Of a DNA stretch of 64,000 bases, positions 15,981 to 33,121 are shown in pieces (positions within the stretch are counted from its first letter, which is position 1; each line of letters begins with the position of its first letter). The DNA lies in NCBI RefSeq assembly GCF_004134905.2, contig NZ_SDPQ02000003.1, positions 434,001 to 498,000 on the forward strand, given 5' to 3'. The DNA is from Aeromicrobium ginsengisoli. Lineage in GTDB: Bacteria > Actinomycetota > Actinomycetes > Propionibacteriales > Nocardioidaceae. The position numbers and the translations under genes are program-made. Below the pieces are notes generated by a model. The model was not told where the DNA came from and did not search any database. It worked only from the letters and a program-made list of their open reading frames with translations.

Positions 15981-16420
15981 CGGTAGCCCCGGTAGCGGTC
16001 GAGCGGACTCGTGAACGTACGCGTGATGTGGACCGACTTGAGCGGCAGGGCGGCGAGATCGCTGAGGTCGAGCGTGCAGTGCACCGTCACCGAGACGGTG
16101 TCGATCGCCAAGGGGTTGTTGGGATCGGGCAGGTCGAACGCGGTCTTGCTCAACACCGGCGGGTCGGCCACCGCAGTGTCGCGGCACGACGACGGCGCAT
16201 CGGCCATGGCGTCGGCGATGACCTCGTTGACGGTCTTGGGGACGTCGGCGCGTACGTTCTGGGCCGTCGCCGCGCGGGCCGCGTCGCGGGCTGCCTGGTC
16301 GACGAGGTTCTCGGTCTGGGCGTAGCGGCCGAACGCGATGATCAGCATCATCAGCGCCAGCAGGAACGGGGCGACGATGACCAGCTCGAGGCTGGCCGAG
16401 CCGCGGTCCTCGCGCCTCAC
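15977..16420 (-). CDS. TadE-family minor pilin (second copy)
   Basis: 147 residues. DRGSASLELVIVAPFLLALMM (about 5-25) is a TadE-type pseudopilin N-terminus: a Gly before the hydrophobic helix and a Glu at position 5 of the putative mature chain. The rest is periplasmic, with two cysteines. It overlaps both neighbours by ATGA, so it is translated in step with the TadE and TadG genes. Confidence 0.85.
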   Translation of the reverse strand: MRREDRGSASLELVIVAPFLLALMMLIIAFGRYAQTENLVDQAARDAARAATAQNVRADVPKTVNEVIADAMADAPSSCRDTAVADPPVLSKTAFDLPDPNNPLAIDTVSVTVHCTLDLSDLAALPLKSVHITRTFTSPLDRYRGYR

Positions 16421-16824
16421 GGCGAGTCCCTCGTGTCGCCCCTGAACTGCTCGAGCGTCGCCTCGGAGGACTGCTGGATCTCGACGGAACCGCCCAGCGG
16501 AAGCACGGCGTCACCGATCACGAGCATCGTCACGCGCCCGGTCTTGGTGTCGATCGAGCCGACCGCGGTGACGTTCTTGAGCCGGCCGATCTTGGTGGCA
16601 TAGCCCTCGGTGACGTCCTCGGCAGCGTTGACGAACGCGCGCGGGTCGGAGTTGTTGCCGGCCAGCCGCAGGTAGGAGACGCCCTCGCGCGACGCCGACT
16701 GCGCGGTGTTGCGCGCATAGAGATAGAGACCCGCCTGGATGATCGTGAAGATCAGGAGCAGGAAGACCGGCGCGATGATCGAGAACTCGACCGCGCTGGT
16801 GCCGCGCTCACGACGAACGCGCAG
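16417..16824 (-). CDS. TadE-family minor pilin (first copy), apparent CTG start
   Basis: The conserved part RRERGTSAVEFSIIAPVFLLL is a TadE N-terminus. No ATG, GTG or TTG lies in frame between the end of the flp gene and this motif. A CTG at 16824, one nt past the flp stop, would give a 135-residue protein starting M-R-V-R-R-E-R-G, the expected form. The only upstream conventional start nearby is a GTG at 16974, which would overlap flp by about 150 nt and add an unlikely Ser-rich segment. The start is therefore uncertain; the domain is not. Confidence 0.75.
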   Translation of the reverse strand: MRVRRERGTSAVEFSIIAPVFLLLIFTIIQAGLYLYARNTAQSASREGVSYLRLAGNNSDPRAFVNAAEDVTEGYATKIGRLKNVTAVGSIDTKTGRVTMLVIGDAVLPLGGSVEIQQSSEATLEQFRGDTRDSP

Positions 16825-16825
16825 C

Positions 16826-17044
16826 TCAGGTGTTGGAACCTTGCTGGATCTTGTTGGAGTTGTCCTCGACGACGCCCTGGATGACCTTGGCGACCACGAG
16901 CGCGAGGACGACGACGACCGCCGAGATGATGGCCCACTCGATCGCGGAGGCGCCGCGCTCGTTGAAGCCTGCACGTCGTGCCCGGTCTGCGCGGGCGTGG
17001 ACGTACGCGATGATTGCCCTGGCGTAGAACAGTTCTGCTGACAC
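16826..17044 (-). CDS. Flp-type pilin (type IVb) candidate
   Basis: 72 residues from GTG 17044. A 32-residue basic leader ends in NERG, followed by ASAIEWAIISAVVVVLALVV. That is a class IVb prepilin cleavage site (after Gly) with Glu at mature position 5, followed by about 38 more residues. This is the expected major pilin of the Tad pilus. A GGGGG stretch (17053-17057) lies 8 nt before the GTG. It directly follows the TadC gene. Confidence 0.85.
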   Translation of the reverse strand: MSAELFYARAIIAYVHARADRARRAGFNERGASAIEWAIISAVVVVLALVVAKVIQGVVEDNSNKIQQGSNT

Positions 17045-17076
17045 GAAATCTTCCCCCGACGCATGGAAACCGTCGC

Positions 17077-17979
17077 CTACCTGAGCTGGCTGACGGCTGG
17101 ATAGGCCAAGAATACCAAGAACGCTATGCACATCAGCAGCTGTGCCATCAACATCGACTGCGAGCTCTCGCCAGCCGCTCCCTCGATGTCGACCATCTCC
17201 TTGCGACGCATGCTCTCGGCCCGTGCCATGAGGGACAGGCGGATCCTCGCGCCCTCGTCACCGGCCAGGGCGAGGGCCGACGCCAGGTCGCGCAGCTCGT
17301 CGACGCCGAGGTCACGGCCGAGCCTCGCGATGCCCTCCCACGGGGTCCAGCCCATGATGCGGGCGTTGGACAGCGCCTGGCGCATGCGCACCATCGCCCA
17401 GTGGTCGCCGAACGACGACGCCGCCATGAGCGCCTCGGGGAGGCCTCGTCCACCGGCGAGGTTCATCGCCACGAGATCGAGGAATGCGCCGGTCACGTGA
17501 CGGAAGTCGCGGCGACGCGACTCGGCCTCGCGGTGCAGGGTCAGGTCGGGCAGGAAGAAGGCGAAGATGCCCGCAATGAGTGCGAACACGATCGGGAGCC
17601 CACCGTTGCCGCCGAACCCGAACAGGAAGACCACGGCGGGGAACCAGATGAACGCGGTCAGGCCCAGCAGTGCCTTGGTACCGAGGTGCGTGGTCATCGG
17701 CCGGTTCATGACCGCGAGATCCTCACGCGTACGCATGAGCTGCCAGCCGCGAGCCGAGACCTCGGCCTCGATGCGCTCGCCGACGGTCTCGCGGATGCGC
17801 TCGAGTCGGCCGTCGGCGCCCGCCCCGGCAGCGCTCGCCGTGAGCGACCGACGTGAATGGCGCGTGCGGTCGAGCCTGCTGAGGGTCGCGGCGACACCGG
17901 GCACAGGACGGCTGAGCAGCACCACGATGATGAGGATGCCGGCGCCGACGCTGGCGCCTGCGAGCAGCTCGAGGATCAT
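17077..17979 (-). CDS. tadC: TadC-like type II/IV secretion F-family membrane protein
   Basis: 300 residues. Four hydrophobic segments flank a cytoplasmic T2SSF domain (about 155-270), with FLDLVAMNLAGGRGLPEAL as its recognisable start. Together with TadB it should form the inner-membrane platform that TadA drives during pilus assembly. The start overlaps the TadB stop by 4 nt. Confidence 0.88.
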   Translation of the reverse strand: MILELLAGASVGAGILIIVVLLSRPVPGVAATLSRLDRTRHSRRSLTASAAGAGADGRLERIRETVGERIEAEVSARGWQLMRTREDLAVMNRPMTTHLGTKALLGLTAFIWFPAVVFLFGFGGNGGLPIVFALIAGIFAFFLPDLTLHREAESRRRDFRHVTGAFLDLVAMNLAGGRGLPEALMAASSFGDHWAMVRMRQALSNARIMGWTPWEGIARLGRDLGVDELRDLASALALAGDEGARIRLSLMARAESMRRKEMVDIEGAAGESSQSMLMAQLLMCIAFLVFLAYPAVSQLR

Positions 17980-18860
17980 GCTTCCGGCACCTTCGTCGTG
18001 GGGGTGATGAGGAAGCGTTCGGGCTCGCTCACACCGGACAGGCTGCGGAGCCAGAACACGCTGAGGCCGAAGACCGCGAGCACCACGGCCAGGACCGTCT
18101 GACCTTCGACGGTGCCGTAGGGCTTGACGTACTCGCGGTTGAAGAGCACGAGCAGGGTCGCGACGCCGGCGATGACGCCCACGACGACCTGGACGCTGCG
18201 GCGGGTGCTGCGCCGGCTCGACTCCACCCGGCGACGTACGTCGAGCTCGTCGCGGGCCGAGCTGGCCAGCGCCGTGAGGACGTCACGCAGGCCCGGACCG
18301 CGGAGGCGGGCGTTGAGGATCAGGGCCGCGACGACGAGGTCTGCGGACGGGTCGTCGAGATCCTCGGAGAACTTCATGAGCGCGTCGGGCAGAGGTTCGC
18401 GTACGCGCAGGCGGTCGACCAGGAGGTTGAGCGCGGGGCGGATCGACGGGGCGGCGTTGACCGCGGTCGCCGGGATCGCCTGCTCCAGGCCGACGGCACC
18501 GGCGATCGTGTCACGAAGAGCCTCGATCCAGCCTGCGAGCCCTTCGATGCGGGCGATCGCCGCTCGTTCGTGGCGGGCGCCGCCGAACACGCGGTCCCAG
18601 AAGGCGACCAGCGCGCCGAGCACCACGGCGAGGACGACCCAGCGGGTCAGCGCGAGGATCACGACGCCCACGAGCGCTCCGGCGAGCAGCTGCTGCCCGC
18701 GGCGCCGGGTCGTACGCGAGGACACCCTGCGGCGCTGCGGCGTCGCGCCCTCGACCGTGCCGGACTCCCCGCCCCGGAGCGCGAAGACCAGGAGCACGCA
18801 GCCGAGGCCGAGCAGTGCTCCCGTCGTGACCGCGAGGGGTATCCGGTAGTCCTCCAACAT
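17976..18860 (-). CDS. tadB: TadB-like type II/IV secretion F-family membrane protein
   Basis: 294 residues. It has N-terminal helices (about 7-28 and 58-88), a T2SSF domain (about 105-235, from GWIEALRDTIAGAVGLEQAI) and two C-terminal helices. It is the partner platform protein of TadC. The gene lies 3 nt after tadA and overlaps tadC by ATGA. Confidence 0.88.
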   Translation of the reverse strand: MLEDYRIPLAVTTGALLGLGCVLLVFALRGGESGTVEGATPQRRRVSSRTTRRRGQQLLAGALVGVVILALTRWVVLAVVLGALVAFWDRVFGGARHERAAIARIEGLAGWIEALRDTIAGAVGLEQAIPATAVNAAPSIRPALNLLVDRLRVREPLPDALMKFSEDLDDPSADLVVAALILNARLRGPGLRDVLTALASSARDELDVRRRVESSRRSTRRSVQVVVGVIAGVATLLVLFNREYVKPYGTVEGQTVLAVVLAVFGLSVFWLRSLSGVSEPERFLITPTTKVPEA

Positions 18861-18863
18861 GGT

Positions 18864-20171
18864 CTAGGTCCACCTGCCGTGGACCATGGGCTGGTAGCCG
18901 TGGTCCTGGAGGTCGGCGATGCAGCCGATCGGCGAGTGCGGCACGGCCCGGCCGTCGCCGTCCGGCGCGAACACCTCGTTGGACAGCACCTGGCCGTCGT
19001 GACCGACGACCTCGCGGATGCTCTCGACGACACGGACCTGTCCGCCGCCGGTCGCGTGGTCGTTGTGCTTGCGGATGAACACGACGAAGTCGAGGGCGCC
19101 GGCGATCAGCATCGTCGTGGCCTCGAGCGGCAGCCGCTCGCGGCTCTGGATCGCGTAGGTGCCGATGCGGTTGAACACCTCGAGCGAGGAGTTGGCGTGG
19201 ATCGTCGACAGCGAGCCGTCGTTGCCTTGGCTCATGGCGTTGAGCATCGTGACGATCTCGTCGCCCAGCACCTCACCGACGATGACCCGCGAGGGGTTCA
19301 TGCGCAGCGAGCGGCGTACGAGCTCGGCCATCGAGACGTGGCCGAGGCCTTCGGAGTTGCCGAGCCGCTCCTCGAACGAGACGACGTTGGGGTGCAGGTC
19401 CTCGTACTCGCCGAGGCCGACCTCGAGGGCCCGCTCGACGGTGATGAGGCGCTCCGACGCCGGGATCACGTTGGCCAAAGCGCGGAGCATCGTGGTCTTG
19501 CCGGCGTTGGTCGCTCCGGCGATCATGATGTTCTTGCGCGCCTTGACCGCGGCGGTCAGGAACGAGCCGATCTCGGGCGACATCGTGCCGTTGGCGACGA
19601 GCTCGTGCAGGAACACCCGGCCGAGGCGCGCCTTGCGCACCGAGATCGACGGTCGCGCGCACACGTTCATGACGGCGGACAGACGCGACCCGTCGGGCAG
19701 CCGGAGGTCGAGCTGCGGGTTGGCCGAGTCGAACGGCCGGCTCGACAGGCCGGTGTGGGCGGCCAGGACCTGGACCAGCTCGACGAGCTCGTCGTCGGTC
19801 TCCGCGACGGGCGGGTGACGCTCTTCACGCCCGTCGGCGTACTGGACGAACACGTGGTCACAGCCGTTGATGTCGATGTTCTCGACGTCGGGGTCGGACA
19901 GCAGCGGCTCGAGCCGGCCGACGCCGAACAGTGCCGAGTGGATCGCGGAGGCGACCTGGCCCTCGATGTCGGCCGGGATCGGCGAACGGCCTTCGGCGAC
20001 CTCGTAGCGGGCGTGGTCCTCGAGGACCTGGATGATCAACGACCGGGCGTACTCGCGCTCGTCGTCGACGTTCATCGGTGCGACGCCGCTGATCTGGTCG
20101 CGGCGACGCTGCTCGTTGAGCCTGTCGGCAACCTGGCCGCGGAGCGCACGGACGAGGTCGTGGTCGATCAT
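18864..20171 (-). CDS. tadA: TadA/CpaF pilus assembly ATPase
   Basis: 435 residues. Walker A is GATNAGKT (219-226) and Walker B is RVIVGEV (295-301), followed by the GE-DE pair and the His-box GSLSTIHA (319-326). The N-terminal domain (about 40-200) has the CpaF pattern FGVGRLEPLLSDPDVENIDING. It hydrolyses ATP at the cytoplasmic face to power pilin assembly. The start overlaps the TadZ-like gene by 4 nt. Confidence 0.93.
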   Translation of the reverse strand: MIDHDLVRALRGQVADRLNEQRRRDQISGVAPMNVDDEREYARSLIIQVLEDHARYEVAEGRSPIPADIEGQVASAIHSALFGVGRLEPLLSDPDVENIDINGCDHVFVQYADGREERHPPVAETDDELVELVQVLAAHTGLSSRPFDSANPQLDLRLPDGSRLSAVMNVCARPSISVRKARLGRVFLHELVANGTMSPEIGSFLTAAVKARKNIMIAGATNAGKTTMLRALANVIPASERLITVERALEVGLGEYEDLHPNVVSFEERLGNSEGLGHVSMAELVRRSLRMNPSRVIVGEVLGDEIVTMLNAMSQGNDGSLSTIHANSSLEVFNRIGTYAIQSRERLPLEATTMLIAGALDFVVFIRKHNDHATGGGQVRVVESIREVVGHDGQVLSNEVFAPDGDGRAVPHSPIGCIADLQDHGYQPMVHGRWT

Positions 20172-20962
20172 GAGGCAACCTCCGGGCTGGACTGCTCGAC
20201 CGGCCGGAACGCGCCCATCGTGCGAGCCGCGAGCTCGTCGACGATCGGCTGCGCCGAGCGTACGAGCTGCGTGCGGGCGGGATTGCCGACGACCTGGCCC
20301 AGGAAGAAGCCGGCCCCGGTCTCGTCGGTCGCCAGGTGGTGGACCGCCGCGACCGGCGTCGCTGAACGCTCGATGGCGTCACGGATCTCGTTGACGGTGC
20401 GCGAACGCTTGGGAGGCGCGACCACGACGACATAGATCGGCGCACCGGCGGCCCCGCCGAGCGTGTCGCTGACCTTGCGCAGGCGCTCGCGCAGATGCAC
20501 GACGCTGCTCGGCACGGTGTCGACGAGCATCACCACTGCCGATGCCGAGGCCAGCAGGGCGTTCTGCGGCGTCTCGGCTCCGATGCGGCCGAGGTCGACG
20601 ACCGTGTCGGTGCCGGGGAGGTGCGCGAACAGCAGGCCGAGCTGGCCCCACTGGCCCAACCCCGACGCCTGCTCCGGCGCCGTCATGCCGGTGACGACGT
20701 CGAGCCCGCCGACGATCTGCTCGACGTGCTGGGAGACCAGCTCGGGATAGAGCGACTTGCGGCCGGCGGCCACGAGGTTGAGCAGGCCCGGGTTGGGATC
20801 GAGCGGCTCGCCGTCGATGCCGGGCATGCGCAGCGCGACGTCACCCCCCGACGGGTCGCACTCGACCATGACGCTGGGCCGCGGCCACAGGGCGGCGAAC
20901 AACAACGCCGCCGTGGTCACGCCGGGCGATCCCTTCGCCGAGGCAACGGCAACCATTCCCAT
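20168..20962 (-). CDS. TadZ/CpaE-like MinD-family protein with atypical P-loop
   Basis: 264 residues. It has the MinD/ParA fold: an N-terminal strand MVAVASAKGSPGVTTAALLFAAL with a deviant Walker A. The family's first Lys is present (AKG), but the usual GK[ST] lysine is Val (GVTT). VECDPSGGDVALR (34-46) is a switch-like segment. TadZ proteins place the pilus machine at the cell pole. The missing P-loop Lys may mean weak or no ATP hydrolysis. It sits between the SAF gene and tadA. Confidence 0.82.
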   Translation of the reverse strand: MGMVAVASAKGSPGVTTAALLFAALWPRPSVMVECDPSGGDVALRMPGIDGEPLDPNPGLLNLVAAGRKSLYPELVSQHVEQIVGGLDVVTGMTAPEQASGLGQWGQLGLLFAHLPGTDTVVDLGRIGAETPQNALLASASAVVMLVDTVPSSVVHLRERLRKVSDTLGGAAGAPIYVVVVAPPKRSRTVNEIRDAIERSATPVAAVHHLATDETGAGFFLGQVVGNPARTQLVRSAQPIVDELAARTMGAFRPVEQSSPEVAS

Positions 20963-20965
20963 GCG

Positions 20966-21634
20966 TCAGGCCTCGCAGGTCTGCTTGACGAGGGTGCTCT
21001 CGCCGCCGATCAACGCCGGCGTGATGGACCTGTCCTCGATGCCCTGCGACACGACCGATAGGCACGAAAGGTCGATCGACACGACGATCGCGACCTCGTC
21101 GCCACCCGAGCCGGCGATCGCTCCGCCCTGCTCGTCGCCGACCGAGATCAGCTCGGCGCGCACGGTCTGCCGCTTGCCGCCGTCGGACGTACCGATGTCG
21201 AGCGCGAGCTGGTCACCCGACTGCAGGCCGCTGATGAACGGCGACGCGTCGACCGTGACCGTGAGGCGGGTCTGGTTCTCGCTGAGGCCGGACTTGTCCG
21301 AGACCATCGAGCGCATCAGCACCGTGCCGGGCAGCAGCCGGGCCGCGGCGGACTTGCCCACGATGCTGTCGGAGTCCGACGACGGGACGCCGCCCTTGAA
21401 CCCTTCGGGCAGGCTGACGCGGGTCAGGTCGTCCTTGGAGATCGTCGCGCCCTGGGCGACCTCCTGGTCGACCTGGACGAAGTACGAGCGGTTGCCCGAC
21501 TGGATCGCCAGCCAGGCCGAGGCCAGCGCGCCGCCGAAGATCAGCAGGACGGCGAGGCCGATCAGGGCCGGACGGGACTCCCGGGTCGAGGGGAGCCGCG
21601 AGACGGTGGCCTGGTTCGCGCTCGGTCGTGCCAT
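20966..21634 (-). CDS. SAF-domain protein, CpaB/RcpC-like
   Basis: 222 residues from ATG 21634, preceded by GAGAGG. One membrane helix (about 24-45) is followed by a SAF domain (about 55-125, VDQEVAQGATISKDDL...LLPGTVLMRSMV). This is the layout of Flp pilus assembly CpaB, which in diderms binds at the envelope. The C-terminal part (about 130-222) has two Cys that may pair. An upstream ATG at 21664 lacks a ribosome site. It is the first gene of the Tad part of the block. Confidence 0.82.
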   Translation of the reverse strand: MARPSANQATVSRLPSTRESRPALIGLAVLLIFGGALASAWLAIQSGNRSYFVQVDQEVAQGATISKDDLTRVSLPEGFKGGVPSSDSDSIVGKSAAARLLPGTVLMRSMVSDKSGLSENQTRLTVTVDASPFISGLQSGDQLALDIGTSDGGKRQTVRAELISVGDEQGGAIAGSGGDEVAIVVSIDLSCLSVVSQGIEDRSITPALIGGESTLVKQTCEA

Positions 21635-21756
21635 GTGGTGCACCTCTCGGGGGTATCTGGTCATCCTCGAGGGACAGCAGGATCCGTCCCCCGACGTGGA
21701 TCTCGGGACAAACGGTACACGGACTCACGTATGCCGCTTGACGGCGGACGGCACCG

Positions 21757-22095
21757 TCAGCGAGAGCTCTTGGGGCCGGGCGTTGCAGGAGCTGAGGACG
21801 GCGTGCGGTCCTGTTGCTGCTGTTCCTTCTTCTCGTTCGCCTCGGTCTTGCGGAACGCCTCGGTCACGGCGAGGGCTGCGACGATGACCGCGACGACGAT
21901 CAACCCGACGACCAGCGCCGGCCAGACCCGGCGGTGCTCGCGCCAAGTGCGACGGCTGCCGTGCAGCAAGGCCGACCGCAGCTGCCGACGCCGCATCGCG
22001 TCGGCCTCGAGGACGTAGCGCTCGGCGTTGGGCGTGTTCTGCATCGCCGACCGCGGCCCGACGGGAGGCGGCCGGTGGCCGTCCTGCTCAGTCAT
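21757..22095 (-). CDS. Single-pass membrane protein, type VII/Tad block
   Basis: 112 residues. The basic cytoplasmic N-terminus (ERYVLEADAMRRRQLRSALLHG) leads into one membrane helix (about 58-80), then a charged Glu/Lys/Gln and Pro/Ser-rich tail. The start overlaps the MinD-like gene by 8 nt, so it belongs to the same operon as EccD. No family recognised. It could be a small accessory subunit. Confidence 0.7.
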   Translation of the reverse strand: MTEQDGHRPPPVGPRSAMQNTPNAERYVLEADAMRRRQLRSALLHGSRRTWREHRRVWPALVVGLIVVAVIVAALAVTEAFRKTEANEKKEQQQQDRTPSSAPATPGPKSSR

Positions 22096-23212
22096 GCCTC
22101 GACCTGCGACCGGCCACGAGCCCGGCGACGCGCAGCATCGCCTCGCGGGTGGCCGGGCTGACATGTGCCGGGTCGTACGCGTGACCGCTCTGCAGGTGCG
22201 GATCGGGTGGGACGACGACGACTGCAGCGCCGGGTGCTCCGCCGAACTCGCGCTGGGCGTCGCGGTGGGACTGCTCGTGGGAGCAGACGACGACATTGAT
22301 CGCCGATGCGGCGGCCTGGGGGTTGACGACCTTGATGCGGTCGAGCGCCGCCCGCAGGGCGTGGACGCCGAGCTCGCCCGGGCTCGTCACGACGACCACC
22401 TGGTCGGCCCTGGCGAGAGCCGAGTGGCCACCCTCGCCCGCTTCGTCGCCGACATCGAGCAGGTTGAACGTGTGGTCGGACCGCAACCGGTCGAGGACCC
22501 CGGCGACGTCGGCGCGGGTCAGGCCCTGGTCCCAGCCCGATCCGTCGACGAGTCCCAGGCCGGTGGCCGCGGCCGGCGGCGTGGTCGCCTCGACCTCCGA
22601 CAGCATCGAGGTCACCGTGCGCGGCTCCGCAGCGCCGAACGTACGCCCGAGGGACGGCGAGCCCTGTTGGACATCGACGACGACGCTGTGGTCCTCACGC
22701 ATCGCCATGAACGCTGTGCCGACGCCAACGGCGATCGTGGTGCAGCCCACACCGCCCTTGCCGGCGACGAAGGCGATGATGCGGCGATCGGTCTGTCGCT
22801 GGCGGATCGCGTCGACGGCCTGGCGCTCACCCTGGACGGCCAGCGCTGCGTCGGGCGTCGTGAGTCCCTTGGCGACGGTGCGCAGCAGGCGACCGGTCTG
22901 CCGGGGCGCGGGTTCGGGCGTGCCGGTGCGCGACAGCAGCTGCTCGGCGGCCGACGGCGAACGTACGGAATCGTCCGGCACCGGCTCCGGCTCAGGAGGC
23001 GGCGCGTCGAACTCGGGACGGATCGGCACGACCCGTGCTCGCGGCTCGTCGACGTCATCCGGCTCCGCGCGTGGCGGCGTGCGCGGCTCGGGATCGCCGA
23101 GGCCGAGACTGCGAGGGTCGATGCCCATGCGGCTGAGATCGCTGGCTGCAGACTGCGCCTGACGGCGATCACGCAGCGACTGGTCGGGCTGGTCCTGGTC
23201 GTCGTCGGACAT
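22088..23212 (-). CDS. MinD/ParA-like ATPase of the type VII block
   Basis: 374 residues. A disordered, acidic, Pro-rich N-terminus (about 1-125) precedes a MinD-like domain starting RIIAFVAGKGGVGCTTIAVG. The Walker A is again deviant: GKGGVG is intact but the P-loop Lys is Cys (GCTT). NTP-binding-like elements VVVDVQQGSPSLG and DHTFNLLDVGDEAGEGG follow. Proteins of this type (for example EspI-like) accompany actinobacterial ESX systems. The ATG overlaps the eccD stop by one base (TGATG). Confidence 0.8.
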   Translation of the reverse strand: MSDDDQDQPDQSLRDRRQAQSAASDLSRMGIDPRSLGLGDPEPRTPPRAEPDDVDEPRARVVPIRPEFDAPPPEPEPVPDDSVRSPSAAEQLLSRTGTPEPAPRQTGRLLRTVAKGLTTPDAALAVQGERQAVDAIRQRQTDRRIIAFVAGKGGVGCTTIAVGVGTAFMAMREDHSVVVDVQQGSPSLGRTFGAAEPRTVTSMLSEVEATTPPAAATGLGLVDGSGWDQGLTRADVAGVLDRLRSDHTFNLLDVGDEAGEGGHSALARADQVVVVTSPGELGVHALRAALDRIKVVNPQAAASAINVVVCSHEQSHRDAQREFGGAPGAAVVVVPPDPHLQSGHAYDPAHVSPATREAMLRVAGLVAGRRSRHD

Positions 23213-24687: not shown

Positions 24688-27600
24688 ATGACGACTGCAC
24701 TGGTGAAACGTCCGGCCCGCATCGAGCCACCCAGCACGCAGTCCGCGCCGCTGTCGATCGAGGCTCCGCCCATGAAGGGCCAGGCCGCGCCGGCGATGGC
24801 CGGCGCCAGCATGATGATGATGCCGATCATGAGCGGCACCGGCTCGGTCACGGTCGCGATCACACAGCGCGGTCGGCCCATCGTGGCGGTCGCGGCGCTG
24901 CTGGCACTGATCGGGTCGATCGCGATCGGCGTCATGATGATGATCAGCCAGCGCAGCGGCACCAAGCGCCAGGTGCGCGAGGGCCGGGAGCGCTACCTCG
25001 ACTACATCGAGGCGCTCCGTCACACGGCCCGCGACCAGATCGCGAGCCAGCGCGCCGAGCAGGCGTGGCGCTACCCCCGCACCGACGAGCTCCTCGACAT
25101 CTGCCGCGACGACACCCGCCGCTGGGAGCGTCGCCCGTCGCACCTTGACTTCCTCTCTGTACGGCTCGGCACGGGCGAGGTCCCGCTCGCCTCGGGCCTG
25201 ACCCTCGATGCCGACACCGGCCCCCTCAACGACTTCGACCCCGTGTGCCTGCAGGCGGCTCAGGAGCTGACCCAGCGCTACTCGTCCCTGCGCGCCCAGC
25301 CCATCACGCTGAACCTGCGCGACATCGGCCAGACCAGCGTCATCGGCCGGCCGTTCCAGCGCCGAGCCCTGGCGACCAACCTGGTCCTCCAGCTCGCGAC
25401 GCTGCAGAGCCCCAACGACGTCGAGATCGCGCTCGTACGTTCTGACGACACCGCCGCCGCCTGGGACTGGATCAAGTGGTTGCCCCACACGCAGTCGGGC
25501 AGCGCCCTCGACGGCGACCTGCCGGCGCGACGCGTGACGTCGGACGTGCCGGCGATGGCCGAGCTGCTGGCCCCCGACCTCGAGGCCCGCCTCGACCGGG
25601 CCCAGCGATCGCGTGGTGGCTCGTCGGCACCGTCCTCACACCTCGTCGTGATCGTCGACGGCGAGGGCCTGCAGCCCGGGCAGCACCTCACGTCGCCCGA
25701 CCCGCAGGTGTCGCTCGCAGCCCTCGGCGTGCACGTCGTGTCGCTGCTCGACTCCGCTCGGCACGAGCCCGAGTCGGTCAACGAGCGCATCGAGCTCGGT
25801 GACGACGGCTCGGTCGTCCTCGACTCCCGCGAAGCGCCGTTCACCCTCGACATCGCGCCCGAGGGCGTCGCCTCCTCCGTCGCCCGGGTCCTGTCGGCCC
25901 TCCGCCTCACGATCGAGGACGCGAGCGACGACGGGCTGACCGACACGGTGGGCCTGCCCGACATCCTCGGTGTCGCCGACCCCGCCAGGCTCGACCTCGT
26001 ACGCTCCTGGCGGCCGCGAGCGCTCCGCGACCTCCTGCGGGTCCCGATCGGTGTCGGCGCGACCGGCAACACCGTCGTGCTCGACCTCAAGGAGTCCGCG
26101 CACGGCGGCATGGGGCCACACGGACTGGTCGTCGGCGCCACGGGTTCGGGCAAGTCCGAGATGCTCCGTACGCTCGTCAGCTCCCTCGTCATCGGCCATG
26201 GTCCTGACCGGCTCGCCCTGATGCTCGTCGACTTCAAGGGCGGTGCGACGTTCGCCGCTATGGAGCACATCCCGCACATCGCGGGCATGATCACCAACCT
26301 CCAGGACGATCTCACCCTCGTCGACCGCATGCGCGACGCGCTCTACGGCGAGATGCAGCGCCGCCAGGAGATCCTCAAGGATGCCGGCAACCTGCCCAAC
26401 GTCACGGTCTACCAGGACAGCGTCGACGCCGGCGAGGACCTCGAGCCGCTGCCGCACCTGCTGGTGATCGTCGACGAGTTCTCCGAGCTGCTGACCGCCA
26501 AGCCCGACTTCGCCGAGCTGTTCGTGGCGATCGGGCGCATCGGCCGATCGATCGGCGTGCACCTGCTGCTCGCGACCCAGAAGCTCGAGATGGGCAAGAT
26601 CCGCGGCCTCGAGTCGCACCTGTCCTACCGGATCAGCCTGCGGACGTTCTCCGAGGGCGAGAGCCGCGACGCGATCGGCGTACCCGATGCATTCCACCTG
26701 CCGCCGGAGCCGGGGTCGGGCTACCTCAAGGTCGACACGACGGTGTTCGACCGCTTCAAGGCCGCACTCGTGTCGTCGCCGTACGTGCCGCCGAGCGACG
26801 GGCCCAAGACGTCGGTGCCGGTCGTCCCCTACGTCGCGGTCAACGGCCTCGGTGCCTGGATCGCCGCCCAACAGGCCGCGCTCGACGATCTCGACGGCGA
26901 GATGCGCGTCGACAAGGCCACCTCCAACGCGACGGTCCTCGACGTGCTGTGCGACCAGATCACGGCGTCGGGCTCGGCGCAGGTCCGGCCGGTCTGGCTC
27001 GAGCCGCTGCCCGCCAAGCTCGCCCTCGGTGAGCTGCTCTCGCTCGACGACACATCCGACCCCACGACCTGCGTCGCGGTGCTCGGCCAGGTCGACGACC
27101 CCGGCCACCAGAGCCAGTTCCCCCTCGCATGGGACTTCACGGGCGGCGGCGCCAACCTCGTGATCTCCGGATCGCCCCAGACCGGCAAGTCGACCCTCAT
27201 CCGTACGTTGATCCTGTCGATGTCGATGTCGTACGCGCCGGGCGACGTCATCTTCTACTGCATCGACTACGGCGGAGGGTCGCTCAGCGCGTTGCAGCGC
27301 GTCCCTCATGTCGCTTCGGTCGCGGCCCGGGTCGATCCCGAGCGCATCAGCCGCACCGTCAACGACGTACGCGCAGCCCTCAACCACCGCGAGGCAATGT
27401 TCCGCGAGCACGGCCTCGAGTCGATGGCCGCGTTCCGCCGCGCTCGCGCCGCCGGCACCGTGCCTGACGACGAGCCCGGTGACGTCTTCCTGATCGTCGA
27501 CGGCTGGGGCACGTTCCGCGACGAGTTCGACGACCTCGACTACGCGATCGCCGACATCGCCGCCCGTGGCACCAACTTCGGCGTGCACGTCATCGTCACG

Positions 27601-28653
27601 GTCACCCAGAACATGCAGGTCCGCATGCGCATGCAGGGCTCCATGGGCGGCCGGCTCGAGCTCCGCATCAACGACGCGTACGACTCGGAGTTCGACCGCA
27701 AGGTCATGGAGCAGATCCCCAAGGATGCCAACGGCCGGGGCATCACCGGCACCCGCAACTCGGCGCTGCTGTTCCAGGCCGCGCTGCCGGTGCTCGAGGT
27801 GCCGGACGCATCGGCCGACGACACGGCCCAGCAGACCCTGATCGACGCCGTGCTCGCCAAGTGGGGCGACCGCAGCGTCACCAAGGTCGAGGTGCTGCCA
27901 CGCCTCGTCACGCTGGCAGACCTGCCCCCGGTCGAGCTCGGCGACAAGGGCGTCCTGGTCGGCATCTCCGAGCTCAACCTCGGACCGGCCGAGATCGACA
28001 TCTTCGGCGCCGACCCGCACCTGCAGGTCTACGGCGACGGCGAGACCGGCAAGTCCAACCTGCTCAAGCTGCTGATCCACAACCTGGTCTCCAGCCACAC
28101 GGCGGACGAGATCGGCATCGTCGTGGTCGACTACCGCCGCTCGCTGCTCGACGTCGTCCCGGAGGACTACCTCCTGACGTACGCGACCGGCATGGAGCAG
28201 GCGGCTGCGATGGCGGCCGACGTCGCCGGCGCCATCCGCGCCCGCGTACCCGGCCCCGATGTCACGTCCGAGCAGCTGCGCAACCGTACGTGGTGGTCCG
28301 GCCTCGAGGTGTTTGTCATCGTCGACGACTACGACCTCGTCGCCACGTCCCAGGGCGATCCGCTGGCGGCACTCGTCGACCTCCTGCCGCAGGGCCGCGA
28401 CCTCGGCTTCCACCTCGTGCTCGCCCGACGCACGGGCGGCATGTCGCGCGCCGTGTTCGAGCCGATGATCCAGCGCCTCATCGACCTCAGCGCACCGGGA
28501 TTCATGTTCTCCGGCGACCGCCTGGAGGGCCGACTCGTGGGCGGCCACCCATCACGCAGGCTGCCCAAGGGACGGGCCATGTACGTCACCCGGGACGGCG
28601 CCACGTCGTTGGTCCAGACCGCGCGGGTCGACGATGACCAGCAGGGCAGTTGA
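24688..28653 (+). CDS. eccC: EccC-like FtsK/SpoIIIE ATPase, three nucleotide-binding domains
   Basis: 1321 residues, the size of fused EccC. The N-terminus has a Met-rich stretch (MMMMPIMSG) and a pair of membrane helices (about 50-92). Three FtsK-type ATPase domains follow: Walker A at GATGSGKS (483-490), GSPQTGKS (828-835) and GDGETGKS (1116-1123). The first has a good Walker B (LLVIVDEFSELL). EccC binds substrates and energises export. ATG 24688 was chosen because the same frame upstream is only the antisense of eccD. Confidence 0.93.
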   Translation: MTTALVKRPARIEPPSTQSAPLSIEAPPMKGQAAPAMAGASMMMMPIMSGTGSVTVAITQRGRPIVAVAALLALIGSIAIGVMMMISQRSGTKRQVREGRERYLDYIEALRHTARDQIASQRAEQAWRYPRTDELLDICRDDTRRWERRPSHLDFLSVRLGTGEVPLASGLTLDADTGPLNDFDPVCLQAAQELTQRYSSLRAQPITLNLRDIGQTSVIGRPFQRRALATNLVLQLATLQSPNDVEIALVRSDDTAAAWDWIKWLPHTQSGSALDGDLPARRVTSDVPAMAELLAPDLEARLDRAQRSRGGSSAPSSHLVVIVDGEGLQPGQHLTSPDPQVSLAALGVHVVSLLDSARHEPESVNERIELGDDGSVVLDSREAPFTLDIAPEGVASSVARVLSALRLTIEDASDDGLTDTVGLPDILGVADPARLDLVRSWRPRALRDLLRVPIGVGATGNTVVLDLKESAHGGMGPHGLVVGATGSGKSEMLRTLVSSLVIGHGPDRLALMLVDFKGGATFAAMEHIPHIAGMITNLQDDLTLVDRMRDALYGEMQRRQEILKDAGNLPNVTVYQDSVDAGEDLEPLPHLLVIVDEFSELLTAKPDFAELFVAIGRIGRSIGVHLLLATQKLEMGKIRGLESHLSYRISLRTFSEGESRDAIGVPDAFHLPPEPGSGYLKVDTTVFDRFKAALVSSPYVPPSDGPKTSVPVVPYVAVNGLGAWIAAQQAALDDLDGEMRVDKATSNATVLDVLCDQITASGSAQVRPVWLEPLPAKLALGELLSLDDTSDPTTCVAVLGQVDDPGHQSQFPLAWDFTGGGANLVISGSPQTGKSTLIRTLILSMSMSYAPGDVIFYCIDYGGGSLSALQRVPHVASVAARVDPERISRTVNDVRAALNHREAMFREHGLESMAAFRRARAAGTVPDDEPGDVFLIVDGWGTFRDEFDDLDYAIADIAARGTNFGVHVIVTVTQNMQVRMRMQGSMGGRLELRINDAYDSEFDRKVMEQIPKDANGRGITGTRNSALLFQAALPVLEVPDASADDTAQQTLIDAVLAKWGDRSVTKVEVLPRLVTLADLPPVELGDKGVLVGISELNLGPAEIDIFGADPHLQVYGDGETGKSNLLKLLIHNLVSSHTADEIGIVVVDYRRSLLDVVPEDYLLTYATGMEQAAAMAADVAGAIRARVPGPDVTSEQLRNRTWWSGLEVFVIVDDYDLVATSQGDPLAALVDLLPQGRDLGFHLVLARRTGGMSRAVFEPMIQRLIDLSAPGFMFSGDRLEGRLVGGHPSRRLPKGRAMYVTRDGATSLVQTARVDDDQQGS

Positions 28654-28740: not shown

Positions 28741-29100
28741 ATGACTTCAGATCGCGTATCACTGTCCGAGGGCTATGAGGGCGCCCTCCAGCAGAACAAG
28801 AACCTCGCCACTGAAGGCGAGAACGCGCACGGCCTCTCCAAGAAGCAGCACAACCACACGGCTGACCTGCTGGGTCAGAACAAGGGTGCGCTCGCGACGC
28901 AGGCCGGCAACGGCTCGACCGCCGCGGCCAACAGCCTCTCGGCCGGTGCGCTGATGCACACCAACAACGCTGCTGGTGGCGCCGACTACCTGCGCCGCAC
29001 CGCCGGCCACGAGGACACGGCGTCGCACGACCAGGCCGGCGAGTCCCGCAACGTCGAGAACTCCGCGTCCGACCTCACCGCCAAGATCAACCGGGCCTGA
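28741..29100 (+). CDS. Small helical WXG100-like protein 1 (no Trp)
   Basis: 119 residues, all predicted helical. Length and position right after eccC suit a WXG100/ESX substrate, but there is no W-x-G motif and no Trp or Cys. It has a run of Asn/Gln/Gly/Ala (QNKGALATQAGNGSTAAANS) in the middle where a turn would lie. The single Tyr near 82 (ADYLRRTAG) is not a YxxxD/E signal. GGGGG (28727-28731) lies about 9 nt before the ATG. Secretion is inferred from context. Confidence 0.7.
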   Translation: MTSDRVSLSEGYEGALQQNKNLATEGENAHGLSKKQHNHTADLLGQNKGALATQAGNGSTAAANSLSAGALMHTNNAAGGADYLRRTAGHEDTASHDQAGESRNVENSASDLTAKINRA

Positions 29101-29129
29101 CAGCCCCTTTCCGACTTCAAGGAGACATC

Positions 29130-29435
29130 ATGAGTGATCAGCTTCGCGTAGACCGTGGGTCCGTCCAGCAGCACGTCGACGACACCCGCTCCAACATGGC
29201 CAACTTCCGCGAGACCGGTGAAGGTGCCGATCGCCAGCAGGCCCACCTCCAGAACCAGATGGAAGGTGGCGTCGGCTCCGACCTGCAGGCCCAGACGCGC
29301 TCGGTCAGCCGCCACCACGGCGAAGAGATCGACACCAACGTCAACAAGCTCGCCGGCAAGACCTCGGAGAACACCGACGAGTTCATCGCCAACGTCCGCA
29401 GCGCGGCCAACAAGTCGCTCAACACGATCAACTGA
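29130..29435 (+). CDS. Small helical WXG100-like protein 2 (no Trp, Tyr or Cys)
   Basis: 101 residues, the length of WXG100 proteins, with two long amphipathic helices around a GVGSD turn (about 47-51). The canonical WxG turn is replaced by GG. Helix 2 carries EEIDTNVNKLAGKTSENTDEF, a WXG100-like heptad pattern. ATG 29130 has AAGGAG upstream. It lies 29 nt after protein 1, so the two may pair as a heterodimer; that is inference. Confidence 0.75.
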   Translation: MSDQLRVDRGSVQQHVDDTRSNMANFRETGEGADRQQAHLQNQMEGGVGSDLQAQTRSVSRHHGEEIDTNVNKLAGKTSENTDEFIANVRSAANKSLNTIN

Positions 29436-29443
29436 GGCTCGCC

Positions 29444-29800
29444 ATGGGTGGATCCAGCGACGTCACCGGCGTCGAAGTCGGTCAGCTGCACAAGGTCGGG
29501 ACCACGGTCTCGGGACGCTCGACGTCGGGTCATGCCGCGGCGAAGGGACTCAAGGAAGGCCTCGACAGCGCGTCGGGCGGCCTTGGGCACCCCATCGTCG
29601 GCACGGCTCTCACGAGCTTCGTGAACGACCACGTGCTCGACGACTCGGGCAAGCTGGGCAACCTGCTCACCGACGGTGGCCACAACGTGTCCAACGTCGC
29701 GTCGACCGCGCGCAACAGCGACGAGCAGGGCGGCGCCAACCTCGCGGCGCCGATCAGCACGACCTCTGAGGTCGGCGACCGCATCAACCGCCAGGTCTGA
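29444..29800 (+). CDS. Small Gly/Ser-rich substrate-like protein 3 (no Trp, Tyr or Cys)
   Basis: 118 residues with a more mixed, Gly/Ser/Asn-rich composition than the two before it. It contains GTALTSFVNDHVLDDSGKLGNLL, a helix-like core, and lacks aromatic residues other than Phe. Only 8 nt separate it from protein 2. No known family. It is followed by a strong hairpin (29839-29876), so the three small genes form a closed transcription unit. Confidence 0.7.
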   Translation: MGGSSDVTGVEVGQLHKVGTTVSGRSTSGHAAAKGLKEGLDSASGGLGHPIVGTALTSFVNDHVLDDSGKLGNLLTDGGHNVSNVASTARNSDEQGGANLAAPISTTSEVGDRINRQV

Positions 29801-29984: not shown

Positions 29985-32528
29985 ATGGTCGCGCGGACTG
30001 ATGGACCGTTCGAGTACTGGGAAGTCACGGGCGATGCCGTGCGTTCTGCGGCGGAGGCGCCCGGTTCCAACGCCGACGTGATCCAGTCGCTGGCCGGCGA
30101 GCTCGAGGGCGACGAGACCCGCGCCGCCAACGCGATCGAGGGCGACATCGAGGCGGGGGTCACCGCCAACACCACGGCCGCCAAGACGACTGCTCAGAAC
30201 CTCGCCGCCAAGGGTCAGTACGCCGTCGGCCTGCTCAAGCAGTTCGGCGCCGACGTCGACACGTTCGACACCACGGTCAACCAGATCAACATCGACTACA
30301 AGACGCGCTACGACAACACGATCTTCGGCATGCACCACCAGCCGGAGTACCGCACCGGCGAGGAGACGATCGACTACGCCGCCGTCGCCGCCTCGATCAA
30401 GGCCGACCTGATGGCGCGCTACCACAAGGCCGAAGGCGTCATCGACGACGCCGCCGACACCATCGCGTCGATGTTCAAGCAGGGCCCCACTGACGCCAAC
30501 GTCAAGGAGCTCATGATCGCCGGGCTGATCCCGCTCAGCGCTGCGAGCGTGTTCCCGGGCGTCACGCTGACGGACTCCGAGAAGCAGCAGGCGCTCGCCA
30601 ACACGATCAAGGGCATGACGCCGGAGCAACAGGCGCAGTACGTCAAGGACCACAAGGAGATCGACGCCAAGACCGCTGAGGTCATCTCCCCCGAGGCCCA
30701 GAAGATCCTCGCCAGCGACGTCGCCGACGACATCAAGAACAAGACGATCGACGCCGAGTCCGTACGCATCCTGGGCCTGATGCAGAACTCGGCGCCGTTT
30801 GCGCACGCGTTCTACAGCCAGGTCACACCCGATCAGATGACCGGCGCGATCGAGAAGCTCTCGAGCGAGGCCTACCCCAACGGCCCGTTCCACGCCGGCG
30901 TCGGCAGCACGGGCGCCGATCCGCTCGACAAGGGCAAGATCGACCTCTACAAGAACTTCCTCTCCGCGGCCGGCGGAACCCTCGCGACGTACTCCAAGGG
31001 CACCGGCGAGTACGCACCGCCCGCCGACGCCGGGATCACGTGGGGCAAGGCGATCACCGACGAGGACCACCCCCAGAACGCCGGCGCGCTCAGCCTGCTG
31101 CTGCGCGAGGGTGGCGAGAACCACGAGTTCGACGGCAAGTTCCTGTCCGACGTCGCCGACACCGTCTACACGTACGAACGCGACCACGAGGACGACCAGC
31201 CGTGGGGCTCGCGCGGCTCGCAGGTCATCGACCCCGACGCCAAGATCGGCAACAACGACGACAACATCTGGGGCGTCCGCAGTTTCGACGCCATGGCGAA
31301 CGTCCTCGGCGCGATGAAGGAGAGCCCCGACGCGGCACAGATGTTCTTCGCCGACGGCTACCCGGACGGCGACACCTCCAAGGACAACAGCCGCCTCGAG
31401 TACCTCCTCACCGAGCGGTCGTTCAGCAAGGACCTGGCCGACTGGAAGTCCGGCGACGAGGGCGACGGGCTGGGCCTGGCGCTCGAGGCGGCGACGATCG
31501 GCCACGACACGCGCAACCAGCTCGGCGCCGACCTCGCCTCCGACGCGTTCACGATCATCGCCGAGAAGAGCGGCAGCGGCGACTCGGGCTGGAGCCCGGT
31601 CGACGGCAAGTGGCACACCTGGCCGGGCCTGACCGACAGCCTCGGCACGATCGCTGCGGGCTACGTCGGCGACATCTACGACACGATCGACAACAACCCG
31701 CCCGGCGACGGCCCGCACCTGCAGATCTCGCAGGAGAACCTCGACAAGCTGCTCGGCGAGATCGGGCGCGGCGAGGACAAGAGCGGCATCGAGACGCTCA
31801 CCGCGGCGGCCGTCATGGAGGGCAACAACCGCATCGGCGAGCACATCCGCGACTGGCAGGAGGACCACCCCGGCGAGCCGCTCACGATGGAGGCGTTGTC
31901 CAAGTCTGGCCTGGGCAGCCTGCTCGAGGGCCGGGGCTCGACCAACGGCGAGATCCTCAAGCACCTGCTCGACAAGTCCGTGCTCGTCGACGTCGACGAC
32001 GAGAAGCTGGCCGAGACCCGCGCGGCCTATGTTGCCAAGGCGTTCGACATCGCCACGAGCTTCGCTCCCGGCGCGGACAAGGTCTTGAGCGCGACCGCGA
32101 GCGAGGTCAGCAAGACCACCTACGACACGCTCAGCGGCGAGGCGCTCAGCCTGCTCGGCGACAAGGTCAGTGCGGCGCCGGACGCCCTCTCGACGAAGTA
32201 CACCGAGGACCAGACCAAGGCACTGCCCAACCAGATCGAGTACGGGCTGGTCAACCAGCTGCACCAGAGTGGCTACCTCGGCAAGCAGGGCGACTACGCG
32301 GGCATACCCGACTCGTTGCTGACCGGGCCCGAGGGGCACCAGACCATCCGCCCCGATCTCTACGATGCCGACGGCATCGAGAAGTTCGACACCAAGGGCC
32401 TCACCGCCGCGCAGGTGGCACAGATCAAGGAGGACTGGCGCACCTGGCAGGAGAGCGATCCTCGCGCGTTCTCCGAGACGCTCAGCGCCTCGGTCCTCAA
32501 CGGATTCGATCGCGCGGTCCGCGAGTGA
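29985..32528 (+). CDS. Large 847-aa type VII-linked protein, function unknown
   Basis: 847 residues with no signal peptide and no membrane helix. The N-terminal about 110 residues (from FEYWEVTGDAVRSAAEAPGS to IDYKTRYDNTIFG) form a long-helix region like the LXG/WXG leaders of large type VII substrates. The rest is helical and rich in Asp, Gly and Lys, with DKGKIDLYKNFLSAAGG and WTYW-poor segments that match nothing I can name. Cys appears absent. GGGGG (29973-29977) precedes ATG 29985. The stop overlaps the next gene as GTGA. It could be an effector or a surface protein. Confidence 0.75.
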   Translation: MVARTDGPFEYWEVTGDAVRSAAEAPGSNADVIQSLAGELEGDETRAANAIEGDIEAGVTANTTAAKTTAQNLAAKGQYAVGLLKQFGADVDTFDTTVNQINIDYKTRYDNTIFGMHHQPEYRTGEETIDYAAVAASIKADLMARYHKAEGVIDDAADTIASMFKQGPTDANVKELMIAGLIPLSAASVFPGVTLTDSEKQQALANTIKGMTPEQQAQYVKDHKEIDAKTAEVISPEAQKILASDVADDIKNKTIDAESVRILGLMQNSAPFAHAFYSQVTPDQMTGAIEKLSSEAYPNGPFHAGVGSTGADPLDKGKIDLYKNFLSAAGGTLATYSKGTGEYAPPADAGITWGKAITDEDHPQNAGALSLLLREGGENHEFDGKFLSDVADTVYTYERDHEDDQPWGSRGSQVIDPDAKIGNNDDNIWGVRSFDAMANVLGAMKESPDAAQMFFADGYPDGDTSKDNSRLEYLLTERSFSKDLADWKSGDEGDGLGLALEAATIGHDTRNQLGADLASDAFTIIAEKSGSGDSGWSPVDGKWHTWPGLTDSLGTIAAGYVGDIYDTIDNNPPGDGPHLQISQENLDKLLGEIGRGEDKSGIETLTAAAVMEGNNRIGEHIRDWQEDHPGEPLTMEALSKSGLGSLLEGRGSTNGEILKHLLDKSVLVDVDDEKLAETRAAYVAKAFDIATSFAPGADKVLSATASEVSKTTYDTLSGEALSLLGDKVSAAPDALSTKYTEDQTKALPNQIEYGLVNQLHQSGYLGKQGDYAGIPDSLLTGPEGHQTIRPDLYDADGIEKFDTKGLTAAQVAQIKEDWRTWQESDPRAFSETLSASVLNGFDRAVRE

Positions 32529-33121
32529 CCCTGCACCCCCGCCTGATCCACAGCCTGCGGACCGCTGCAGTCGTGCTGGTCATCGGCACGGGTCTCGCCG
32601 CCTGCGACGGTGGCTCGGACGGCCCCAAGCCGCCGATCGACTCGACGCTCGTCGACGGCAAGGTCTGTGGCCTGTTCGACCCGGATCTCGTGAAGTCCGT
32701 CATCGGGCACGACGAGATCAAGGTTCGCGGCACCGGCATCGGGGACGTCACCAAACGGACGGACGACACGATCGACTGCGACGTCGTCGATGACCGACGA
32801 GTCGCGTCCACGATCCAGGTGATCGTCGCAGAGCAACCTGACGCGAGCGATCACGCGTCGACCGAGACGATGCTCACGAACGAGCTGGCGGGCAAGACCG
32901 ACTGCTCGCAGCCCGCCAGCATCACCGAGCTCGGTCCGGGCTACGTCTGCACACGGGAGGACGGCCAGGTCCAGCTGAACGTCCTGCTCCCCAAGCGGCT
33001 GGTGCGGCTCTCCTATCAGCCCGGCCCCGATGCCAAGGGCGACGCCACCGCGACCGCGGTCAAGCTGGTCAAGGACGTCGACGCCAACATCGACGCGTAC
33101 GACAAGAAGCACGCTGGCTGA
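32525..33121 (+). CDS. Lipoprotein coupled to the 847-aa protein
   Basis: 198 residues from GTG 32525, overlapping the previous stop by 4 nt. The lipobox GTGLAACDGGSD places the lipid-modified Cys at about residue 25. The mature domain has three further cysteines (about 49, 82 and 119) that could form disulfides. No family recognised. The coupling suggests it is anchored near the product of the large gene, for example as a receptor or a protective partner. Confidence 0.75.
   Translation: MTLHPRLIHSLRTAAVVLVIGTGLAACDGGSDGPKPPIDSTLVDGKVCGLFDPDLVKSVIGHDEIKVRGTGIGDVTKRTDDTIDCDVVDDRRVASTIQVIVAEQPDASDHASTETMLTNELAGKTDCSQPASITELGPGYVCTREDGQVQLNVLLPKRLVRLSYQPGPDAKGDATATAVKLVKDVDANIDAYDKKHAG

What the first reader, a model, noticed from the sequence alone, without database searches (positions are those of the whole stretch)
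28741..29800. Three small secretion-linked proteins without Trp or Cys
Three consecutive genes of 119, 101 and 118 residues follow eccC. None has Trp or Cys, two also lack Tyr, and none has a WxG turn or a YxxxD/E tail. Length and helix pattern suit WXG100 partners, but the defining motifs are absent. They could be a new substrate family with a different recognition signal.
Basis: seen in the sequence. Interest (0 to 1): 0.72.

Follow-up and report, generated by a model that had tools for sequence, protein, structure and literature searches.

The report
Three partner proteins of a secretion effector
Three small helical proteins encoded between a type VII secretion motor and a large swappable effector in a soil bacterium (Aeromicrobium) look like the matched escort proteins that carry that effector to the motor, built without the usual recognition motifs and belonging to a stripped-down secretion system that surveys of this machinery do not list.

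Summary
P0001, P0002 and P0003 (119, 101 and 118 aa) follow eccC. None has Trp, Cys, WxG or YxxxD/E. The same holds in all ten Aeromicrobium ortholog sets, apart from Cys in two P0003 orthologs.
They are not an isolated new substrate family. They form a conserved three-gene cassette lying between eccC and a large polymorphic effector. The effector's first ~200 residues are conserved; the rest is replaced even between near-identical loci. A putative immunity lipoprotein follows it.
In one relative (G112) the flanking genes are 92-98% identical to the window. There the C-terminal half of EccC (NBD2/NBD3) and the whole cassette have been replaced together. S. aureus essC and its 3' substrate genes co-vary in the same way.
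Best reading: Lap/EsxBCD-like escort proteins that dock the effector onto EccC. P0002 is WXG100-related through intermediates. P0003 belongs to a wider Nocardioidaceae family. P0001 is an orphan predicted to fold as a hairpin.
P0001 and P0003 share a C-terminal [KR]INR tail, a candidate export signal (untested).
The host system is EccC plus EccD beside Tad pilus genes, with no EccB and no WXG100 detected: a layout not described in the T7SSa-j survey. Secretion itself is unproven.

The parts
28741..29100 (+). P0001, small partner A, 119 aa; no family match; AlphaFold2 hairpin 3-57/60-118 with its turn at invariant N57-G58-S59-T60; C-terminal KINRA
29130..29435 (+). P0002, small partner B, 101 aa; remote WXG100 relative through intermediates (Pfam alone E 0.084, below cut-off); conserved G-V-G-S instead of W-x-G
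29444..29800 (+). P0003, small partner C, 118 aa; family shared with other Nocardioidaceae; invariant R-I-N near the C-terminus (R-I-N-R in 9 of 10 orthologs)
   Evidence: structure model unreliable
29985..32528 (+). P0004, 847 aa candidate effector: conserved N-terminal ~200 aa, replaceable remainder
32525..33121 (+). lipoprotein (198 aa) whose start overlaps the effector's stop; candidate immunity/partner protein, no family match
24688..28653 (+). eccC, three-NBD FtsK/SpoIIIE ATPase; NBD2/NBD3 part changes together with the cassette
   Evidence: start codon inferred from the relative in L014
23212..24567 (-). eccD
22088..23212 (-). MinD/ParA-like ATPase next to eccD, conserved in all loci of this type that extend far enough
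21757..22044 (-). 95-aa protein with one hydrophobic (TM-like) stretch, weak DUF6479 match
15336..21634 (-). Tad/Flp pilus-type genes (SAF/CpaB-like, CpaE-like, CpaF, TadB, TadC, Flp, TadE) on the same strand as eccD

Best explanation
The three proteins are escort (targeting) partners of the polymorphic effector encoded next to them. A, B and C fold as small helical proteins (at least A and B as WXG100-type hairpins) and bind the conserved N-terminal ~200 residues of the effector. They present the complex to the C-terminal ATPase domains (NBD2/NBD3) of the EccC encoded just upstream, which exports the effector with or without the partners. Shown here: conserved gene order, purifying selection, effector modularity, and joint replacement of EccC NBD2/3 with the cassette. 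Inferred from the Lap1/2 and EsxBCD precedents: physical binding, docking and export. The host machine is a reduced type VII system: EccC and EccD, with no EccB and no canonical WXG100 protein detected in the genome, beside Tad pilus genes.
For: Gene order eccC-A-B-C is kept in 10 Aeromicrobium genomes, followed directly by the effector in nine of them. A-B-C cassettes with other sequences lie by eccC of the same type in G112, genus g21 and G031. Effector residues 1-200 are 64-88% identical and the rest mostly 6-20% identical (at most 26% in any block of 50) to those in L013/L014, although EccC there is 94-98% identical. G112: flanks 92-98%, EccC residues 1-700 86%, NBD2 56% and NBD3 52%, cassette wholly different, while more distant species keep NBD3 at 77-87% together with the same cassette. 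P0001 is modelled as a hairpin, mean pLDDT 71.5. P0002 links to WXG100 by an HMM chain (B_aero to B_g21b 2.5e-7; other-genera B model to a canonical WXG100 3.8e-8). Precedents: S. aureus EsxB/C/D-EsaD, encoded between essC and esaD (PMC10653861); Lap1/Lap2 (PMC9600955); essC type co-varying with its 3' genes (PMC5994694).
Against: No binding or secretion data. P0001 shows no sequence relation to any WXG100 or to the other A proteins. P0003 could not be modelled (pLDDT 44). The P0001 structure search returned only generic helical hits and no WXG100. In L017 the cassette is present without a local effector. The cassette replacement rests on a single genome, G112. No toxin domain was recognised in P0004.
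Confidence: 0.66

Rival explanations
1. The three proteins (or an A/B pair) are the core secreted WXG100-type components of this system, standing in for EsxA/EsxB, and are exported in their own right; the effector is a separate substrate.
For: No WXG100 match in the own genome, so something must fill the EsxA role if one is needed; the cassette directly follows eccC, and L017 keeps it without a local effector.
Against: In S. aureus the core EsxA stays constant while 3' substrates change with EssC type; here the cassette changes with EccC NBD2/3, which is escort/substrate behaviour. Several genus g21 genomes (G038, G064, G070) carry two cassettes, the second beside the effector array and away from eccC.
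Confidence: 0.22
2. A, B and C are antitoxin or immunity-like proteins that neutralise the effector rather than deliver it.
For: Small, adjacent and co-directional; polymorphic toxins have an adjacent protector.
Against: They are 96-98% identical in L013 and L014 while the effector's C-terminal module is unrelated, so they cannot be matched to it; a lipoprotein or other small gene downstream changes with the module.
Confidence: 0.04
3. The genes are ordinary hydrophilic small proteins of the Tad pilus or cell envelope that merely neighbour eccC.
For: Tad genes are close by in every locus that extends far enough.
Against: They lie on the eccC side, on the other strand from the Tad genes, and are replaced with EccC NBD2/3 and not with the Tad genes, which stay 93-96% identical in G112.
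Confidence: 0.05

Closest known systems
Staphylococcus aureus EsxB/EsxC/EsxD export factors of the EsaD nuclease (T7SSb; PMC10653861)
   Same: Three small helical-hairpin proteins encoded between the EssC/EccC ATPase gene and a polymorphic effector; they act on the effector's conserved N-terminal region; the cassette goes with the ATPase variant
   Different: EsxB has WXG and EsxD has YxxxE; here neither motif exists. EsaE chaperone gene present there, none seen here. Different phylum; no Pfam or NCBIfam match linking them was found
Lap1 (DUF3130) / Lap2 (DUF3958) LXG-associated helical proteins (PMC9600955)
   Same: Small WXG100-fold proteins encoded upstream of the effector and needed for its export
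   Different: Two proteins rather than three; Lap1 carries FxxxD, absent here; no Pfam match to either family
WXG100 superfamily (PF06013)
   Same: Length of about 100 aa; P0001 predicted as a hairpin with a conserved Gly at the turn; P0002 related through intermediates
   Different: No W-x-G, no Y-x-x-x-D/E, scores below the Pfam cut-off
Streptomyces-type cassette: WXG100-like FNG protein, NF035935 'ESAT6_3' protein, DUF6507 (PF20117), then a large protein (L108, L111, L112, L114)
   Same: Same gene order of three small proteins then one large protein
   Different: Sequence relation not established: DUF6507 model to P0003 family E 0.0017 against a control at 0.0041
T7SSg/T7SSh of Bacillota (PMC11217815)
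   Different: Those are Bacillota systems with WXG100 proteins; the one here is in Actinomycetota, with EccD, and no WXG100 detected

Membership tests
WXG100 (PF06013) | central W-x-G motif | tested here: not met
   0 of 30 orthologs; control 17/17
WXG100 (PF06013) | profile score above the Pfam cut-off (27.3 bits) | tested here: not met
   P0001 and P0003 no match; P0002 13.6 bits; nearest relatives of P0002 up to 24.9 bits
WXG100 (PF06013) | about 100-aa helical hairpin | tested here: inconclusive
   P0001 hairpin 3-57/60-118, pLDDT 71.5, pTM 0.34; P0003 model poor; P0002 not modelled; structure search uninformative
WXG100 (PF06013) | homology of P0002 through intermediates | tested here: met
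   B_aero model hits B_g21b at 2.5e-7; other-genera B model hits a canonical WXG100 (L073_2301) at 3.8e-8; WXG model hits B_g21b at 1e-5
T7SS substrate with YxxxD/E signal | Y-x-x-x-[DE] near the C-terminus | tested here: not met
   0 of 30 orthologs; [FYW]xxx[DE] in the last 40 residues also 0
Lap1/Lap2 (DUF3130/DUF3958) | match to these families | tested here: not met
   no such match in Pfam or NCBIfam
Lap/EsxBCD-type export partners (functional class) | small genes beside a polymorphic effector with conserved N-terminus | tested here: met
Lap/EsxBCD-type export partners (functional class) | physical complex with the effector N-terminus and requirement for export | not testable with these tools
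   needs co-purification and secretion assays
DUF6507 (PF20117) | profile match by P0003 | tested here: inconclusive
   P0003 itself none; a relative in G112 17.8 bits, below the 25-bit cut-off; own DUF6507 model 0.0017 against control 0.0041
T7SSa (ESX) | EccC and EccD | tested here: met
   TIGR03924/03925 and TIGR03920 above cut-off
T7SSa (ESX) | EccB | tested here: not met
   no PF05108 match in the 4.0-Mb genome, 99.9% complete
T7SSa (ESX) | MycP and EccE | not tested
   not searched

The most novel reading that the evidence does not exclude
A reduced type VII machine of Actinomycetota (EccC and EccD without EccB or any WXG100 protein, run with Tad pilus parts) exports polymorphic effectors through three motif-less escort proteins whose shared C-terminal [KR]INR tail replaces the YxxxD/E export signal and is read by EccC NBD2/NBD3.
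Probability: 0.17. Interest if true: 0.82.

Novelty: new variant of a known kind. Interest (0 to 1): 0.56.

Why it matters
Type VII export is thought to need a bipartite WXG plus YxxxD/E (or FxxxD) signal. A conserved cassette with neither, changing together with the motor's substrate-binding domains, gives a natural test of what EccC reads. It would extend the three-partner escort principle, shown in Bacillota, to Actinomycetota outside mycobacteria. It also points to a type VII layout (EccC/EccD plus Tad genes) that the T7SSa-j survey does not describe; Tad-adjacent systems were known there only in Bacillota and their linkage was left open.

Tried and rejected
Profile searches of the PDB with A1-A3 gave only chance hits. 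The P0001 fold search against the PDB listed no WXG100 protein and only generic long-helix matches (Z 7 or less), so it says nothing either way; the plain Foldseek job failed and was not repeated. The P0003 model is unusable. hhalign on these small helical families is weakly discriminating: canonical WXG100 against its own reversed alignment scored 63%, so I relied on HMM searches against a pool of local proteins; that pool still contained canonical WXG100 genes of L071-L073, which appear there as 'control'. Immunity role for A-B-C rejected because the cassette stays constant while the effector module changes. Non-overlap of eccB carriers (7/49) and P0001 carriers (10/49) was noted, but with these numbers it may be chance.

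Full report
Observation. The three ORFs exist at the stated coordinates with the stated lengths. Composition is as described: no Trp, no Cys, Tyr only in P0001, no WxG, no YxxxD/E. With the window's composition the lack of both W and C over 338 residues has a chance of about 0.001, and no other called window protein of 60 aa or more lacks both. The genes are under purifying selection and conserved in order in 10 of 49 Aeromicrobium genomes. All 30 orthologs lack W, the WxG motif and the YxxxD/E motif; 17 canonical WXG100 proteins used as a yardstick have WxG in all cases and YxxxD/E in 13.

Setting. The window comes from an Aeromicrobium-like genome (nearest named relatives Aeromicrobium sp. 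Root344, sp. 9AM and A. endophyticum). eccC (24688-28653, +) and eccD (23212-24567, -) pass their NCBIfam cut-offs. No EccB and no WXG100 protein is detected in the 4.0-Mb, 99.9% complete genome. On the eccD strand follow a MinD-like ATPase, a 95-aa TM-like protein and Tad/Flp pilus-type genes. The eccD-MinD-TM-CpaB order holds in the Aeromicrobium loci that reach far enough and in genus g21, G005 and G031. Loci with an ordinary ESX layout (L071-L073) have EccC only about 41% identical, WxG-bearing small proteins and none of the Tad genes.

The cassette is general, its sequence is not. Beside eccC of this same type, G112, genus g21 (G038, G064, G070, G021) and G031 carry three small genes of about 111-120, 97-104 and 114-120 aa; G038, G064 and G070 also have a second such set beside the effector array. 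HMM comparison gives: P0003 family to the other-genera C families, 5e-11 to 2e-5; P0002 family to a g21 B family, 2.5e-7, which in turn reaches canonical WXG100 proteins (3.8e-8 and 1e-5 in the two directions). Relatives of P0002 reach up to 24.9 bits with the Pfam WXG100 model, still under the cut-off of 27.3. P0001 relates to nothing by sequence. Its AlphaFold2 model is a two-helix hairpin (3-57, 60-118; pLDDT 71.5, pTM 0.34) whose turn falls on the invariant N-G-S-T, the place where W-x-G sits in WXG100 proteins and F-x-G in other A proteins (GFKG, GFAG). That placement is inference.

The neighbour is a polymorphic effector. P0004 residues 1-200 are 64-88% identical to three proteins in L013 and L014, and the rest is mostly 6-20% identical per block of 50 (26% at most), the level of unrelated sequence. 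More distant species (L015, L016) have 24-58% identity over most of the remainder. Two exchangeable C-terminal types are seen: one with the Pfam 'EspA-like TPR_23' match (L013a, L014a, L020, L021b) and the window's type without a Pfam match; the effector of G112 matches DUF6571. The gene after the effector changes with the type: lipoproteins after the window type in most loci, a YCEIQGLR...DxTEVEGTP protein after the TPR_23 type. This is the layout of a polymorphic effector with its immunity gene, though no toxin domain was recognised. The partners stay 96-98% identical while the effector modules differ, so they serve the conserved N-terminal part.

Link to the motor. Eleven of 49 Aeromicrobium genomes carry this EccC type: the ten with P0001, and G112. 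In G112 the flanks are close to the window (CpaE 94%, CpaF 96%, HAD phosphatase 92%, acyl-CoA dehydrogenase 98%), and EccC residues 1-700 are 86% identical, as in L015-L017. NBD2 and NBD3 fall to 56% and 52%, the level of other genera (54-57%), and the cassette and effector are entirely different. Species with more distant flanks keep NBD3 at 77-87% and keep the cassette. The change begins after about residue 700, at the start of NBD2. S. [quoted passage not shown] non-cognate EssC fails to export EsxC (PMC5994694). This is the strongest evidence that A, B and C are read by, or delivered to, EccC NBD2/3. It rests on one replacement event.

Candidate signal. P0001 ends in KINR-[AS] and P0003 carries RINR (RINH once) near its end in all ten genomes. 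[KRP]x?[IV]N within the last ten residues also occurs in the A and C proteins of G112, G031 and two of three g21b sets, against about 1% of 382 control proteins. The pattern was chosen after seeing it, and the A and C families may be related, so it is a lead only.

How it most likely works. By analogy with S. aureus EsxB/C/D on EsaD (three small proteins between essC and the effector, modelled on the effector's first 220 residues as a helical shaft; PMC10653861) and with Lap1/Lap2 (PMC9600955), A, B and C would coat the effector's N-terminal ~200 residues and present a signal to EccC. The steps 'bind' and 'export' are inferred. Against calling them members of a known family: the WXG100 motif and cut-off were tested and not met, and Lap families do not match. 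They work like Lap/EsxBCD partners; membership is shown only for P0002, as a remote WXG100 relative.

Novelty. The principle is known in Bacillota, and the 2024 survey finds Lap-like partners beside most candidate substrates (PMC11217815). New here are the motif-less three-protein set, its joint replacement with EccC NBD2/3 in Actinomycetota, and the EccC/EccD-plus-Tad layout. The survey names Tad-adjacent systems only in Bacillota (T7SSg, T7SSh) and does not mention Aeromicrobium or any Nocardioid- name. I found no paper on type VII secretion of Aeromicrobium in the held library beyond one passing co-mention; the library omits most subscription journals.

Noticed in passing
window 15336-24567 (-): Tad/Flp pilus-type genes follow eccD, a MinD-like ATPase and a 95-aa TM-like protein on the same strand; the eccD-side part is conserved beside this EccC type in several Nocardioidaceae genera. 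Possibly a type VII/Tad hybrid system not in the T7SSa-j list.
   Followed up: partly
L060 (G112) EccC, after about residue 700: Sharp identity drop inside EccC at the NBD1/NBD2 border with the same flanks, a recombination-like replacement of NBD2/3, cassette and effector.
   Followed up: yes
L061, L062 (G038): Array of several effector-like genes with the same N-terminal module, each followed by a small lipoprotein-like gene, and a second small-protein cassette at its end.
   Followed up: partly
L065:211-1434: A P0003-like N-terminus is fused to a longer C-terminal part (407 aa) upstream of an effector in G005, suggesting that partner C can be part of a larger protein.
   Followed up: no
L108, L111, L112, L114 (Streptomyces-type genomes): Three small genes (FNG protein, NF035935 ESAT6_3, DUF6507) precede a large uncharacterised protein: a likely analogous cassette for an unstudied family; no held paper mentions DUF6507.
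   Followed up: partly
Aeromicrobium genus, 49 genomes: EccB-bearing T7SS (7 genomes) and the Tad-linked EccC type (11 genomes) never occur together; numbers are too small to exclude chance.
   Followed up: no
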